From NCBI RefSeq assembly GCF_001458775.1, contig NZ_CZPZ01000004.1, forward strand, positions 1 to 64,000: a stretch of DNA of 64,000 nt, in the 5' to 3' direction. Below, in pieces: positions 3,631-8,711 of this stretch. The notes beneath the pieces were generated by a model. It had not been told where the DNA came from. It saw only the letters and a list, made by a program, of their open reading frames with translations, and made no database searches. The position numbers and the translations under genes were made by a program. Each line of letters begins with the position of its first letter. Position 1 is the first letter of the stretch. Source of the stretch: Candidatus Nitrospira nitrificans. GTDB lineage: Bacteria; Nitrospirota; Nitrospiria; Nitrospirales; Nitrospiraceae.

Positions 3631-4626
3631 CTACCGCTGCACACGTAAGATGGGGCCAAGGGTCAGCCATTTGGATGGGCCCAACGCAGCCATGTGGGGC
3701 AAGTGAGCGACGTACCAGAACACGATGTCTTGCTCCTGCACTCCCTCATTATCTTCGTCGTATCCCAACTGGCCTCGCGCTCCGAAACTCCACGGCACAT
3801 CTTCGCTTGCATTGGCTCGGCGGATTGCCACATCGATGTCCGCAAACCTGTCTCGTTCGCCGTCATCCTTCAGTGGAACATATCCGGCACCGGGCAGAAT
3901 CCAGACTCCGTGGCCGTTCAGCTGATCGCGCACCAACCAAACCTTATGGAGAGCGGGAATCTTGACGTCGTTTCGTTCATTCCCGTACTTCCGCCACCCC
4001 GGTCCCCACCCTCGATCCGCCCCTCCGTCTTCGTGGACGAAGACCTGATCCATACCGTTCCCGTTGATATCGAAATCAAACCGCCAATAGGGGTGATGAT
4101 CATGGTTGGTGTTGCACGACAAGCCCCGACTATGCAGCACGGGACGGAGTTCGCCGTCATCCGACAGGTGCCAGGCTTGATAGAGATGATATTCCCCGAT
4201 CCTGGCATAGATTCCCAACTCGAGCCACTTCACATTATTCTGGGTTGAGCTTTCCGTGCAGACTTTCCGATCGCCGCAGTTGACGATCGGCACCAGATCC
4301 TGCCACCTCAGCCGATCCTGAAACGGGCCGCATCGTCCGCTGTCAGCCCGCGAGCCAAACCACGTGAAGGGATTCCACCAGACCATCTCTTTCACATACT
4401 TTACGCGGACGACGGGCATGCTGGCCTTGCCAAGAATCAGTTCATCGCCATACTTCACGTTTCGCAACGCCAAGCCCTGGTTGTCCCGGACTTCCCAGTC
4501 GAAACTCCACTTCCCCCAGTCGACATGTTCGGATTGCGTCTCGGCAAGAACCGGCTCGGAGTACGCGAGTGCGCAGGCAAGGAGTATTCCGCTCCACCAG
4601 ATTCGCGTCATCGTCTTCTCACTCAC
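3631..4626 (-). CDS. secreted protein with shortened copper amine oxidase-like catalytic domain
   Basis: 331 residues with a signal peptide (about 1-29, LLACALAYSEPVLA). From residue 35 the sequence follows the catalytic beta-sandwich of copper amine oxidases. GEYHLYQAWHLSDDGEL (144-160) aligns with the GNYDY segment that carries the TPQ tyrosine. NHDHHPYWRFDFDING (174-189) aligns with the HxH copper motif before RLDLDVDG. DIVFWYVAHLPHMA (300-313) aligns with the third copper His region. ADSG (94-97) matches the catalytic Asp region. Tyr146, His175, His177 and His311 are therefore conserved, but the Asn before the TPQ Tyr is Glu. The domain is about half the usual length. Its ATG overlaps the upstream lipoprotein stop by ATGA. 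Whether it is an active oxidase is not known. Confidence 0.6.
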   Translation of the reverse strand: MSEKTMTRIWWSGILLACALAYSEPVLAETQSEHVDWGKWSFDWEVRDNQGLALRNVKYGDELILGKASMPVVRVKYVKEMVWWNPFTWFGSRADSGRCGPFQDRLRWQDLVPIVNCGDRKVCTESSTQNNVKWLELGIYARIGEYHLYQAWHLSDDGELRPVLHSRGLSCNTNHDHHPYWRFDFDINGNGMDQVFVHEDGGADRGWGPGWRKYGNERNDVKIPALHKVWLVRDQLNGHGVWILPGAGYVPLKDDGERDRFADIDVAIRRANASEDVPWSFGARGQLGYDEDNEGVQEQDIVFWYVAHLPHMAALGPSKWLTLGPILRVQR

Positions 4627-5411
4627 GAGCGAGGCGGCTCCTCACCCGCATCCAAAACTTTCTCCTCGGTCAGATCGACGACCGCCCAATATTTGGGATC
4701 TCCGTCCTGTCCTTTTGAAAAGGTAATCCACATCGTGCGGTGGGCGTAGCCGGGATCGTTTCTGAAAAACCCCCGGTCTGGTTGCATCAGTAATCCGTGG
4801 CCTTGGAGCTGTTCCACCTTGCCGGCCAGACGGGGATCGGCCTTGGCCAATTCAATCCCTCGTTGGACATCCTGTTGTCCTTCCGGAGGAAGATACCCTT
4901 CCAGGGGCGAGACGCTGAGCAGATTTCCCCCCTTCATCCGGACGTCCACGGCAACATTTTGGCTGTAGCTGTAGTAGACGAGCCTCGTTAGCTTGGCCGC
5001 CTCGCGGCAACATCCAAATGAGATCTTGCCTTCGGGCGGCACACGATCAGCGTCGATAAACGCCCATCGGCTACCCAGAAGCTTGGCGACACGCGCATCG
5101 CGTTCGGCCGCGCTCCGTAACGCCGCCACCTCGTTGGCGGTCAACACAGCCGAGGCATTCGTGGACCGCTTCACGGCCGCATCCGAAACAGCCCCGACCA
5201 TTTTGGGCTTGTGATGACCAGCGGCGTCGTCGCCGGTAAATTGGAGCATGTGCGGAGAAGGGGGTTTCTCGGGCAACTGGGTTTTCCGCACAGGAGTCTC
5301 GGGATCCTCTGGGCCGAACGGACCACGGGAGCCGGCATCGAGGCTACAACCATAGCCGATACCAAGGACCGTCAACAGGAAGAGAGTCCGCCACCCCGTG
5401 GGGTAGGTCAT
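4623..5411 (-). CDS. lipoprotein with amine-oxidase N-terminal (N2/PepSY-like) domain
   Basis: The start at 5411 gives MTYPTGWRTLFLLTVLGIGY followed by a GC lipobox, so this is a lipoprotein; the ORF could extend upstream but would lose its signal peptide. Residues 105-235 include LVYYSYSQNVAVDVRMKGG, then LSVSPLEGYLPPEGQQDV and IELAKADPRL. This is the pattern of the small N-terminal (N2/N3) domains of copper amine oxidases, where a YxNYxxNxxVxVxVD strand is followed by PPL/PPE and AxxLAxxDPRV. The catalytic-like domain is the next gene, joined by an ATGA overlap. Together they resemble an amine oxidase split into two secreted chains. It could also be a stand-alone PepSY-type protein. Confidence 0.55.
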   Translation of the reverse strand: MTYPTGWRTLFLLTVLGIGYGCSLDAGSRGPFGPEDPETPVRKTQLPEKPPSPHMLQFTGDDAAGHHKPKMVGAVSDAAVKRSTNASAVLTANEVAALRSAAERDARVAKLLGSRWAFIDADRVPPEGKISFGCCREAAKLTRLVYYSYSQNVAVDVRMKGGNLLSVSPLEGYLPPEGQQDVQRGIELAKADPRLAGKVEQLQGHGLLMQPDRGFFRNDPGYAHRTMWITFSKGQDGDPKYWAVVDLTEEKVLDAGEEPPRS

Positions 5412-5415
5412 AGCG

Positions 5416-5934
5416 TTACACCGCCAGCTTCCCGGCAATTCCCAATGCAAGTCTGGAGATCTGCGCGGCGGCCTTGATGACGGCAGCCCGCTTTTTTCGA
5501 GAGGCCGCATTCAGAATGGCTTCCTTCATAAGCTCTTTGTAGGCCTTGACCTCATCTCTCGTGAAAGGAACGATCTGTGCGATGGTTTCATTATTAAAGG
5601 TATTGGCCAGCTGGACGTACAGGTTGGAGATTTCCGCCGCATAAATCCCTCGACGAAGGGGATCATTCTTGTAGGTTTCGAATTTCTTCCGTAATGCCGC
5701 CACCGCTTCAAGGAGCGCCTTTTGGCGAACCCTGGTTTCATCCTGCCTTCCGACCTCGAATTCGACCGTTGCCAACTGATCGACCAGCGCCTTCGCCTCT
5801 TCACGGGCATGGTCCACCTGAACCGAGAGATCGGTGATTTCCTGATGCGCACCCTCGGCGGTTTCCATCAACTGCTTGATCAGACTATCGTTCTCTTCCA
5901 GAAAGCCCACGACCCCAGCCATACTGGTCTCCAT
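5416..5934 (-). CDS. coiled-coil protein of unknown function
   Basis: 172 residues, no signal peptide. Residues 1-110 are largely heptad-like and charged (QEITDLSVQVDHAREEAKAL), followed by a basic alanine-rich C-terminus. The start at 5934 follows GAGGCAGC; Met5 is an alternative. It lies 4 bases before the lipoprotein gene and 10 bases after the preceding lipoprotein, inside a tight five-gene operon. It is the only cytoplasmic-looking member. No family is recognised. Confidence 0.75.
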   Translation of the reverse strand: METSMAGVVGFLEENDSLIKQLMETAEGAHQEITDLSVQVDHAREEAKALVDQLATVEFEVGRQDETRVRQKALLEAVAALRKKFETYKNDPLRRGIYAAEISNLYVQLANTFNNETIAQIVPFTRDEVKAYKELMKEAILNAASRKKRAAVIKAAAQISRLALGIAGKLAV

Positions 5935-5944
5935 GCTGCCTCCT

Positions 5945-6655
5945 CTATTGCCCGTCGTCTTTCTTCAACCGGTCTAGAAGGTCGACCAAGTCCGCGGTAA
6001 AGGTATGGGCCCGTTCCAGGCTCCTCATCCGAACCATGCGCGAGCCCGTCACTTCCTCCAACGCATCATTGACGGTTCGGGAATGATTCAACGTCTCCAT
6101 GATTCGCGCAGATCGGCCTGGAGCCTGCTCCACCAAGGCAGCCACAAACTCCGGATCGACAGAGGCCAAGCCCGACTTCTCCGCATGGCGCTTCAACTGG
6201 GCATGGATCGCCGCCGCGCGCTTCCATGAGTCGTTTAACGCATTGGCCGTGTCACGTAGGTTGCAGAAGTCTTCTTCAAATTGTTCCCACACCGCCTTTT
6301 CCAAGCCCTGATAGTCGGCCACGTACATCTGACCCACGAGATAGGCCGCGGCATACGCGGCCTCGCCTTTCTTGCCGGCGACGTTTCGATACGAAGAGAG
6401 CACGAACTGATGCTTCGCTTCCTGCGCCCTCAGTGACGTGAACGCGTCGTTCAACTCGTTGCGGGCTTTCTCCAAGAACTTGATGCGGTCTTCCGTTTCC
6501 TTCTGAAACAGATCGATGTTCGTCTGTGCCGCATCGATCTTCGTGCCTTCCATGCGAATCAGGTCACGAACCGCCTCACTATGAATCGAATGACAGCCCA
6601 CCACGCTGATCGCGATGAGCGTGATGCTCAGGCCGCTGACTATCTGTCGGATCAT
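5945..6655 (-). CDS. predicted lipoprotein, alpha-helical
   Basis: The signal sequence MIRQIVSGLSITLIAISVVG ends in a CH lipobox. The remaining 215 residues are almost entirely helical and charged, with coiled-coil character at 40-90 (KETEDRIKFLEKARNELNDA). No catalytic motif is seen. It is the second gene of the operon, 30 bases after the upstream lipoprotein. Shared secretion and close packing suggest that the operon products form one envelope assembly (inference). Confidence 0.8.
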   Translation of the reverse strand: MIRQIVSGLSITLIAISVVGCHSIHSEAVRDLIRMEGTKIDAAQTNIDLFQKETEDRIKFLEKARNELNDAFTSLRAQEAKHQFVLSSYRNVAGKKGEAAYAAAYLVGQMYVADYQGLEKAVWEQFEEDFCNLRDTANALNDSWKRAAAIHAQLKRHAEKSGLASVDPEFVAALVEQAPGRSARIMETLNHSRTVNDALEEVTGSRMVRMRSLERAHTFTADLVDLLDRLKKDDGQ

Positions 6656-6685
6656 ACAGGTTTCCTCCTGCTCAGGAGCGAGTCA

Positions 6686-7315
6686 TCATCGGCGCAAGGT
6701 CCGCACGGCCTCTGCGAGCGACTGCACTTCGTCACGGGATACGGTGACGTCAATATCCAGATACTGCTTAAGGATCGCGTTGATTCGGCGAAGCGCGCCC
6801 ACGTTGTTGCCGTACTGATCGAAGGCCGTCAGATCCACATTTGCGGAAGCTTGGGCATCCTTTTCTATGCGCTGCGCGATCCGACCGGTGAGTTCAGGAA
6901 GCTTCTGAAGGAGATTGCTCATGTCTCCCGTACCGGCCTGAAACACGACCTGCCCATCCGGCCCTTTCCGCTCGGGAAGATTCTTGAGACGAATGTCATT
7001 GATCAGCGCGATGACCTCGGCCCCTAGCAGCTCGGCGTCGTCCTTCGCCAACTCGGCATCGGCGACGTCGGTCAGTTTGGGGTTCGTCGTGGCCCACTGC
7101 AACGCCAAGTTGAGCTTGAGCCTGGTTTGAACATGGCGATACCACTGGTGATGCCGTTCGGTGACGTTCGTCACCAACTCTCGGTATTGTTCCATCAACC
7201 GCTGGTTCTCCGTATAGGCCTGATCCTTGGCGATCACGGCTTGTTTGACTTCCGGCGGAGTGGCGCAGCCGAGACAGGCCAGACTCAGCGCGACAAGAAC
7301 CTGCGCTGCTTTCAT
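6686..7315 (-). CDS. predicted lipoprotein, first gene of operon
   Basis: The start at 7315 is set by GGAGGAATCACC and the lipoprotein signal MKAAQVLVALSLACLGC. The ORF is open further upstream, but that extension has neither signal peptide nor ribosome-binding site. The mature 193 residues are helical and charged (AKDQAYTENQRLMEQYRELV), without a known motif. It heads the minus-strand operon 7315-3631. Confidence 0.8.
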   Translation of the reverse strand: MKAAQVLVALSLACLGCATPPEVKQAVIAKDQAYTENQRLMEQYRELVTNVTERHHQWYRHVQTRLKLNLALQWATTNPKLTDVADAELAKDDAELLGAEVIALINDIRLKNLPERKGPDGQVVFQAGTGDMSNLLQKLPELTGRIAQRIEKDAQASANVDLTAFDQYGNNVGALRRINAILKQYLDIDVTVSRDEVQSLAEAVRTLRR

Positions 7316-7517
7316 GGTGATTCCTCCTTCCGACTCACGCCTGGAGCAAACCGTCACCGAACGCCAGTGCCGCCTGACTACCTCGATAACGAGGGTGGAG
7401 CAGTGCCGGAGAAGTCGACTCCTGTCACCCCTGCACATCAACTATGTAGTAATGATCGGTAGTATGGACTCGTTAGGCGAGCAAGTACACAGAGCCTAGT
7501 ACAATTCAGTAACTTTC

Positions 7518-8711
7518 CTAGGTGAGCCCACGTATGATTTCTTGATAGTACGCCTCAAGAAGCGTGGCGCGCGCTTCTTCTATCATGACCAATTGCCGTT
7601 GATCGAATGTATTCGCGCAGTACAGATAGTGCGTTTCATCCACGATCCCCAGCTCCACATGCACTTGTCGGCCGTCCGGCTCCTCGCGCGTCAATTCATG
7701 GATGATCGTTCGTTCCGTCAATTCTTCCCACACAACCTGCGCCGAGGGGCCATGGTTCTCGTAGAGCGGTTCGTTGGGATCGATGGAGTTCGCCAGCATG
7801 GCGTTGAGCGTGAAGAGAGTCCCATCATCCAACTCCGGCAATTCATCCCAGGCGACTGTGACCTGATGCCCCTTGTTCAAGACATAAAAAGGCCCATCCT
7901 CCACCGGCTCTTCAATGGATCGGTATTGAATCGGATCCGCTGGGTGCGCGAGTTGTAGCCCTCGGCCGGCTAGCGCGCGCTGGAATGGGATTCGCCTGGC
8001 CAATTGCCGTGTTTTCTCACTCACGATCATGCGGCCATGTGGGCGTAGGGCCTGGCACAGACTGTCAAGTCGGATCGCCAACCCTGTCCGCCGTTCAAAC
8101 GCCGTCTGGCGCGCTGGATCGTCTCCACGATCGAACGTCTTCCAACTCTCGCTGGGTATCCCAGGATCCTGTTCAGCTTGAAGCAGTGCATGCGTCGCCA
8201 AGACCATGTCGAAGGAACCTACAAGAGATTCCCTTTCGATATCCAGGCAGATGAACCGAAGATTACGCAGGCCCAGGTCCTTCGTCTTTTGTTGTGCGAG
8301 CGCAATCGATGACGCCGAGCGATCGATGCCGACCAGATTCACATCGGGGAAACGACGGGCGTACAAGGTCGTCAGGATACCGGGCCCACAACCGAAATCG
8401 AGAATGTCCCAGGCCTTGCCGAGGTGAGCCATCGTTCGCAGCCCGATCGCTTCATAATATTCATACCGCTGGCTATAGAGAGCCGGAACGATCTTCGGAT
8501 GCGCGGCAAGATCATAGAACGCGGTTTCGTCCACATGATTGCCCGTGCGCTTTCGTTCGGCGTGGATACGGAGCCGGTTCAGTTCTTCGACGGAGAGCCG
8601 CTGCCGCTGCCACAAGAAGTAATCGCGGTCGGATGTGAAGTGTCTGAGCCCCCACCACGCAAGATGCTCGCGAAGCGCCTCTCGTACCCCGTCGTTCGCA
8701 TCAACCAGCAC
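7518..8711 (-). CDS. class I SAM-dependent methyltransferase-domain protein
   Basis: 397 residues. The GTG at 8711 follows an in-frame stop that itself forms the TGAGGA ribosome-binding site. SAM-binding motif I is ILDFGCGPGILTTLY (103-117), with VNLVGIDRS as the acidic loop and RFICLDIERESLVGSFDMVL as motifs II-IV. The N-terminal 100 residues and the roughly 160-residue C-terminal part are not recognised; the C-terminal part could select the substrate. It follows the ProA-like gene by 34 bases on the same strand, so the two are probably co-transcribed. Substrate unknown. Confidence 0.8.
   Translation of the reverse strand: MLVDANDGVREALREHLAWWGLRHFTSDRDYFLWQRQRLSVEELNRLRIHAERKRTGNHVDETAFYDLAAHPKIVPALYSQRYEYYEAIGLRTMAHLGKAWDILDFGCGPGILTTLYARRFPDVNLVGIDRSASSIALAQQKTKDLGLRNLRFICLDIERESLVGSFDMVLATHALLQAEQDPGIPSESWKTFDRGDDPARQTAFERRTGLAIRLDSLCQALRPHGRMIVSEKTRQLARRIPFQRALAGRGLQLAHPADPIQYRSIEEPVEDGPFYVLNKGHQVTVAWDELPELDDGTLFTLNAMLANSIDPNEPLYENHGPSAQVVWEELTERTIIHELTREEPDGRQVHVELGIVDETHYLYCANTFDQRQLVMIEEARATLLEAYYQEIIRGLT

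What the first reader, a model, noticed from the sequence alone, without database searches (positions are those of the whole stretch)
3631..7315. Operon with a split, shortened copper amine oxidase-like pair
Two adjacent coupled genes (ATGA overlap) carry what look like the N-terminal domain (as a lipoprotein, 4623-5411) and the catalytic domain (secreted, 3631-4626) of copper amine oxidases. Aligned by eye with the E. coli enzyme, the catalytic part keeps the TPQ-position Tyr146, both His of HxH (175, 177) and the third His (311) without gaps around them, but is only about 300 residues long and has Glu in place of the Asn before the TPQ Tyr. Three further genes (two lipoproteins and a coiled-coil protein) complete the operon. 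I know of no described two-chain miniature amine oxidase.
Basis: partly seen in the sequence, partly recalled or inferred. Interest (0 to 1): 0.72.

Follow-up and report, generated by a model that had tools for sequence, protein, structure and literature searches.

The report
Two-gene short copper amine oxidase relative
Nitrospira bacteria carry a small relative of copper amine oxidases whose helper domains and active-site domain are encoded by two separate neighbouring genes, an arrangement I could not find described for these well-studied enzymes; whether it actually oxidises amines still has to be tested at the bench.

Summary
The secreted 331-aa protein (3631-4626, -) matches only the catalytic D4 domain of copper amine oxidases (Pfam E 1.4e-8; profile-profile E 4.8e-14; predicted fold Z 17.6 to the Arthrobacter enzyme). 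The upstream lipoprotein (4623-5411, -) matches only domains D2-D3 (E 1.1e-5; Z 9.4). Reversed, shuffled and crossed controls give nothing. The three copper His, the cofactor Tyr and the Tyr equivalent to E. coli Tyr369 are invariant in all relatives; the Asn before the cofactor Tyr is replaced (Glu, Gln, His, Ala, Trp). The active-site base is unresolved. The five-gene operon recurs in many Nitrospira. The two-gene core also occurs without the other three genes, as a paralogue, and on an alphaproteobacterial plasmid. Single-chain short relatives exist too; the tree separates canonical, single-chain short and two-chain forms. All five genes are under purifying selection. Most likely: an envelope-anchored two-chain copper/topaquinone oxidase, split at the D3-D4 boundary. 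Activity, cofactor and physical association are inferred. [quoted passage not shown]

The parts
3631..4626 (-). cat: secreted catalytic-domain (D4-like) protein, 331 aa from GTG (326 aa from the conserved ATG at 4611)
   Evidence: Pfam PF01179 34.5 bits, cut-off 27; hhalign to CuAO D4 E 4.8e-14; VIA Z 17.6, rmsd 3.8, 245 residues to 1avk
4543..4626 (-). probable Sec signal peptide of cat, cleavage after VLA (residue 28)
   Evidence: sequence inspection: hydrophobic core and A-x-A-like end, kept in relatives; no signal-peptide program available
4396..4398 (-). Tyr77, equivalent to E. coli Tyr369 (hydrogen bond to TPQ O4)
   Evidence: joint alignment: Tyr in 100% of canonical, single-chain and two-chain forms
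4315..4317 (-). Asp104, the only invariant acidic residue between Tyr77 and Tyr146; candidate active-site base
   Evidence: Asp in 55 of 55 short forms; not placed on E. coli Asp383 by the profile alignment, so unresolved
4189..4191 (-). Tyr146, equivalent to the TPQ precursor (E. coli Tyr466); preceded by Glu145 instead of Asn
4096..4104 (-). His175-x-His177, first two copper ligands (E. coli His524, His526)
3694..3696 (-). His311, third copper ligand (E. coli His689)
4623..5411 (-). nter: lipoprotein carrying the D2-D3-like domains, 262 aa, lipobox Cys22
   Evidence: hhalign to CuAO D2-D3 E 1.1e-5, to D4 E 0.4; Foldseek only CuAO at E<0.001, VIA Z 9.4 to E. coli CuAO 87-284; Cys22 nearly invariant
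5416..5934 (-). cc: predicted coiled-coil protein, 172 aa, no signal peptide seen
   Evidence: conserved in the operon; no family hit over cut-off
5945..6655 (-). lp2: helical lipoprotein, 236 aa, lipobox VVGC21
   Evidence: conserved in the operon; single copy in the genome
6686..7315 (-). lp1: helical lipoprotein, 209 aa, lipobox CLGC17
   Evidence: conserved in the operon; single copy in the genome

Best explanation
A short copper amine oxidase relative made of two chains. The D2-D3 domains are a lipid-anchored protein and the D4 copper/active-site domain is a separate exported protein; the ancestral chain was cut at the D3-D4 linker (shown by alignment). Both chains carry export signals (sequence), so they should meet at the cell envelope and re-form the D2-D3-D4 unit (inferred). 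Copper bound by His175, His177 and His311 would convert Tyr146 to topaquinone, with Tyr77 in the place of E. coli Tyr369, and the enzyme would turn amines into aldehyde, ammonia and hydrogen peroxide outside the cytoplasm (inferred from the invariant site). lp1, lp2 and cc are accessory, perhaps anchoring or scaffolding; the pair exists without them.
For: Domain assignment is exclusive: cat to D4 E 4.8e-14 but to D2-D3 0.27; nter to D2-D3 1.1e-5 but to D4 0.4; reversed and 20 shuffled controls no better than 0.01. Folds: Z 17.6 over 245 residues for cat, Z 9.4 for nter. Tyr77, Tyr146, His175, His177, His311 invariant in the relatives aligned; acidic residues of a structural calcium site also kept (Asp184, Asp186, Asp300 = E. 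coli 533, 535, 678). nter lies directly upstream of cat in at least four settings: the operon, a second Nitrospirota family without lp1-lp2-cc (L063, L064), a Nitrospira paralogue (L057) and a Microvirga plasmid (L103). A single-chain short form with both halves exists in Nitrospira, Variovorax and Nonomuraea. Purifying selection, median dN/dS 0.065 (cat) and 0.093 (nter).
Against: The Asn before the cofactor Tyr is absent; N381A in the Arthrobacter enzyme cuts TPQ formation 180-fold and kcat 160-fold (PMC9491219). The residue after it is His, not Asp/Glu. No residue could be placed securely on the essential base Asp383. AF2 models are of modest confidence (pLDDT 59 and 64), lowest around residues 75-104. 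No test of association was possible.
Confidence: 0.6

Rival explanations
1. Pseudo-enzyme: the fold and a copper site are kept but no topaquinone is made; the pair binds copper or a ligand at the envelope, or is a structural part of a lipoprotein complex with lp1, lp2 and cc.
For: Asn of the consensus is missing and varies freely; the base is not identified; the D4 is about 100 residues shorter than the Pfam domain model.
Against: The precursor Tyr and Tyr77 have no need to be invariant in a mere copper binder, yet they are, together with Asp104, down to relatives that share 25% identity in other phyla.
Confidence: 0.25
2. A copper oxidase with other chemistry: the altered cofactor surroundings serve another substrate or a Tyr-derived cofactor used differently, for instance acting on protein lysines or on non-amine substrates.
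For: Consistent replacement of Asn and of the following Asp/Glu across the whole short group; a single-chain relative in Variovorax lies next to a galactose oxidase-like gene.
Against: No direct evidence for any other chemistry; all placed active-site residues fit amine oxidation.
Confidence: 0.12
3. Artefact: a normal single gene split by a frameshift or assembly error.
For: The two frames meet within four bases.
Against: Same two-gene layout in some 40 genomes, each with its own export signal, low dN/dS, and in another phylum.
Confidence: 0.01

Closest known systems
Copper-containing (TPQ) amine oxidases, Pfam PF01179 with D2 and D3, e.g. E. coli TynA, Arthrobacter globiformis AGAO, Hansenula HPAO-1
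   Same: Homologous D4 and D2-D3 by profile and by predicted fold; cofactor Tyr, three copper His, Tyr369 equivalent, Ca-site acids
   Different: Two chains instead of one; D4 about 300 instead of about 400 residues, with shorter stretches between the active-site strands; no Asn before the cofactor Tyr; base not identified; own lipid anchor on the D2-D3 chain
Single-chain short relatives of about 550 aa (L058-L061 in Nitrospirota, L104 Variovorax plasmid, L105 Nonomuraea), annotated as hypothetical where annotated
   Same: Same shortened D4 with invariant Tyr, His and Asp104; D2-D3-like part in front
   Different: One chain, no export signal seen, Trp before the cofactor Tyr; separate clade
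Lysyl oxidases (LOX, LTQ cofactor)
   Same: Copper- and Tyr-derived-quinone amine oxidation
   Different: Described as non-homologous to TPQ enzymes (PMC3382800); no hit here

Membership tests
TPQ copper amine oxidase | D4 beta-sandwich enzyme domain homologous to PF01179 | tested here: met
TPQ copper amine oxidase | Three copper-binding His (HxH plus a distant His) | tested here: met
TPQ copper amine oxidase | Precursor Tyr of TPQ at the homologous position | tested here: met
TPQ copper amine oxidase | Strictly conserved second Tyr (E. coli 369, HPAO-1 305) | tested here: met
   Tyr77
[quoted passage not shown]
   A-R-I-G-E-Y-H in the window; Asn position is Glu 44, Trp 4, Gln 2, Asn 1, His 1 of 52
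TPQ copper amine oxidase | Conserved Asp as active-site base (E. coli 383) | tested here: inconclusive
   Asp104 is invariant but aligns elsewhere; region has low model confidence
TPQ copper amine oxidase | D2 and D3 domains in the same chain, before D4 | tested here: not met
   D2-D3 on a separate upstream gene
TPQ copper amine oxidase | Homodimer of 70-80 kDa subunits with beta-hairpin arms | not testable with these tools
   chains are about 37 and 28 kDa by length; no complex prediction available
TPQ copper amine oxidase | Bound copper, TPQ and amine oxidation with hydrogen peroxide release | not testable with these tools
   needs protein

The most novel reading that the evidence does not exclude
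An obligate two-chain quinoenzyme: the lipid-anchored D2-D3 chain is needed for copper loading, topaquinone formation or substrate gating by the D4 chain, and the short group makes its cofactor without the Asn that all characterised enzymes depend on.
Probability: 0.25. Interest if true: 0.75.

Novelty: new variant of a known kind. Interest (0 to 1): 0.6.

Why it matters
Every structurally characterised copper amine oxidase is described as a homodimer of one 70-80 kDa chain (PMC3382800). A naturally split, roughly one-quarter shorter form with all copper ligands and the cofactor Tyr would show how little of the enzyme is needed to build topaquinone, what D2-D3 do, and how the cofactor can form without the conserved Asn. 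It also gives Nitrospira, including this amoA-bearing (comammox-type) genome, a candidate envelope source of ammonia and hydrogen peroxide from amines.

Tried and rejected
Link with complete ammonia oxidation: the genome has amoA, but 17 genomes of a sister genus carry the operon without it and several amoA genomes lack it; dropped. Viral contigs: no relatives. PDB profile search with nter alone: no hit; the relation shows only by profile-profile and fold comparison. hhalign with the narrow alignment A1 against a single sequence was weak (E 0.027); wider profiles resolved it. Function of lp1, lp2 and cc: only sub-threshold helical matches and no paralogues of lp1 or lp2 in the genome. Prior description: papers on split or two-subunit copper amine oxidases or on PF01179 in Nitrospira were not found; the 2025 family survey covers plants and animals only. 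One 2024 paper mentions an amine oxidase in a Ca. Nitrospira abstract without saying which kind in the passages found.

Full report
Observation. The four named residues are correct. The overlap is GTGA with a GTG start, not ATGA; most relatives support the ATG at 4609-4611 as the start.

Identity of the catalytic half. The only Pfam family over its cut-off is Cu_amine_oxid, E 1.4e-8. A profile of close relatives finds, in the whole PDB, only copper amine oxidases below E 0.001 (2e-5 for the Arthrobacter enzyme). A wider profile aligned to the D4 domain of 12 canonical enzymes (E. coli TynA plus plasmid-borne ones) gives E 4.8e-14 over 281 columns, and 6e-18 when single-chain short relatives are added. 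The AF2 model is modest (mean pLDDT 59), but Foldseek's 50 best matches are all copper amine oxidases, and VIA-align gives Z 17.6, rmsd 3.8 over 245 residues to 1avk.

Identity of the upstream half. Sequence searches alone fail. Profile-profile comparison maps residues 79-259 onto D2-D3, E 1.1e-5, and not onto D4. The AF2 model (pLDDT 64) has two successive helix-plus-sheet units; all 24 PDB chains at E below 0.001 are copper amine oxidases, and VIA gives Z 9.4 to E. coli residues 87-284. The large rmsd (12) of the two-domain match reflects the relative placing of the domains; single domains fit at about 3 A. The lipoprotein ends at the D3 end and the secreted protein resumes at the D4 start, so the cut lies at the domain linker. 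Controls: the reversed alignment and 20 column shuffles gave E no better than 0.01, and the crossed pairs 0.27 and 0.4.

Active site. In a joint alignment of canonical, single-chain short and two-chain forms, Tyr77, Tyr146, His175, His177, Arg182 and His311 are identical in all rows and fall on E. coli 369, 466, 524, 526, 531 and 689. Acids of one calcium site of the E. coli enzyme are also kept (assignment of that site from my own knowledge of the structure). The consensus Asn is not: Glu in 44 of 52, otherwise Trp, Gln, His or Asn, Ala in Microvirga. Mutating it in known enzymes slows but does not abolish cofactor formation: 5-10% TPQ for HPAO-1 N404A (PMC3382800), 1/180 rate for AGAO N381A (PMC9491219). 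The base is open: Asp104 is the only acid invariant in all 55 short forms between Tyr77 and Tyr146, but the profile places it on a different column from Asp383.

Distribution. 40 of 296 Nitrospirota genomes, in five genera of two families, have a match (some are fragments or distant paralogues). Five-gene order in 24 of 25 loci. In L065 the lp1-lp2-cc block lies on the opposite strand beside the pair. In the second family (L063, L064) the pair occurs without the block. In G199 a paralogue (L057) again has a D2-D3 gene directly upstream (E 5.9e-20). On a Microvirga ossetica plasmid (L103) a 247-aa D2-D3 protein (30% identity, E 2e-23) precedes a D4 protein with a repeated C-terminal extension. 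The two-chain forms are one clade (support 96/93), the single-chain short forms another (100/99), and both are cut off from canonical enzymes (100/100) (long branches noted by the program). Because canonical enzymes are single-chain, one fission in the short lineage is the simplest history (inference).

Selection. Median dN/dS is 0.065 for cat, 0.093 nter, 0.088 cc, 0.117 lp2, 0.118 lp1 (synonymous changes near saturation, so values are rough). Some genomes hold broken or fragmentary copies (L068, L069, L070, L071), so the system is dispensable.

Mechanism. Shown: homology of both halves, split at the linker, conserved copper and cofactor residues, conserved gene pairing. Read from sequence: export signals on both. 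Inferred: association, copper, topaquinone, amine oxidation, envelope location. Accessory role of lp1, lp2 and cc: inferred from gene order only.

Comparison and verdict. It is a homologue of copper amine oxidases, and it probably works like one, but the consensus around the cofactor and the one-chain architecture were tested and not met, so it is not filed as a canonical member. I rate it a new variant of a known kind. I found no earlier description in the open-access papers searched; subscription papers were not covered.

Noticed in passing
L104:4037-5626 and 6013-7818: Variovorax plasmid: single-chain short copper amine oxidase relative (annotated hypothetical) next to a galactose oxidase-like gene and an FG-GAP repeat protein, two possible copper/tyrosine oxidases side by side.
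   Followed up: no
L103:4881-7070: Microvirga D4 protein has a roughly 40-residue Gly/Ala-rich insert where Nitrospira has the conserved WWNPFTWFG loop, and a C-terminal array of about 45-residue repeats that looks like a lectin-type propeller.
   Followed up: partly
L057:4591-5358, L056:4519-4836: G199 paralogues: D2-D3 protein with a His-rich stretch (RHSHNHSHEG) and no clear lipobox next to a D4 protein with a long C-terminal tail; the L056 D2-D3 copy appears truncated.
   Followed up: partly
L068, L069, L070, L071: Broken or fragmentary copies of the operon in four Nitrospira genomes, in two of them (L068, L071) with lp genes partly kept.
   Followed up: partly
L117 (G000:C32:159741-160448): The window's genome carries amoA-type AMO (E 7.9e-100), so it is a candidate complete ammonia oxidiser.
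   Followed up: partly
window 7518-8711: Methyltransferase-domain protein directly upstream of the operon on the same strand; not checked for linkage in relatives.
   Followed up: no
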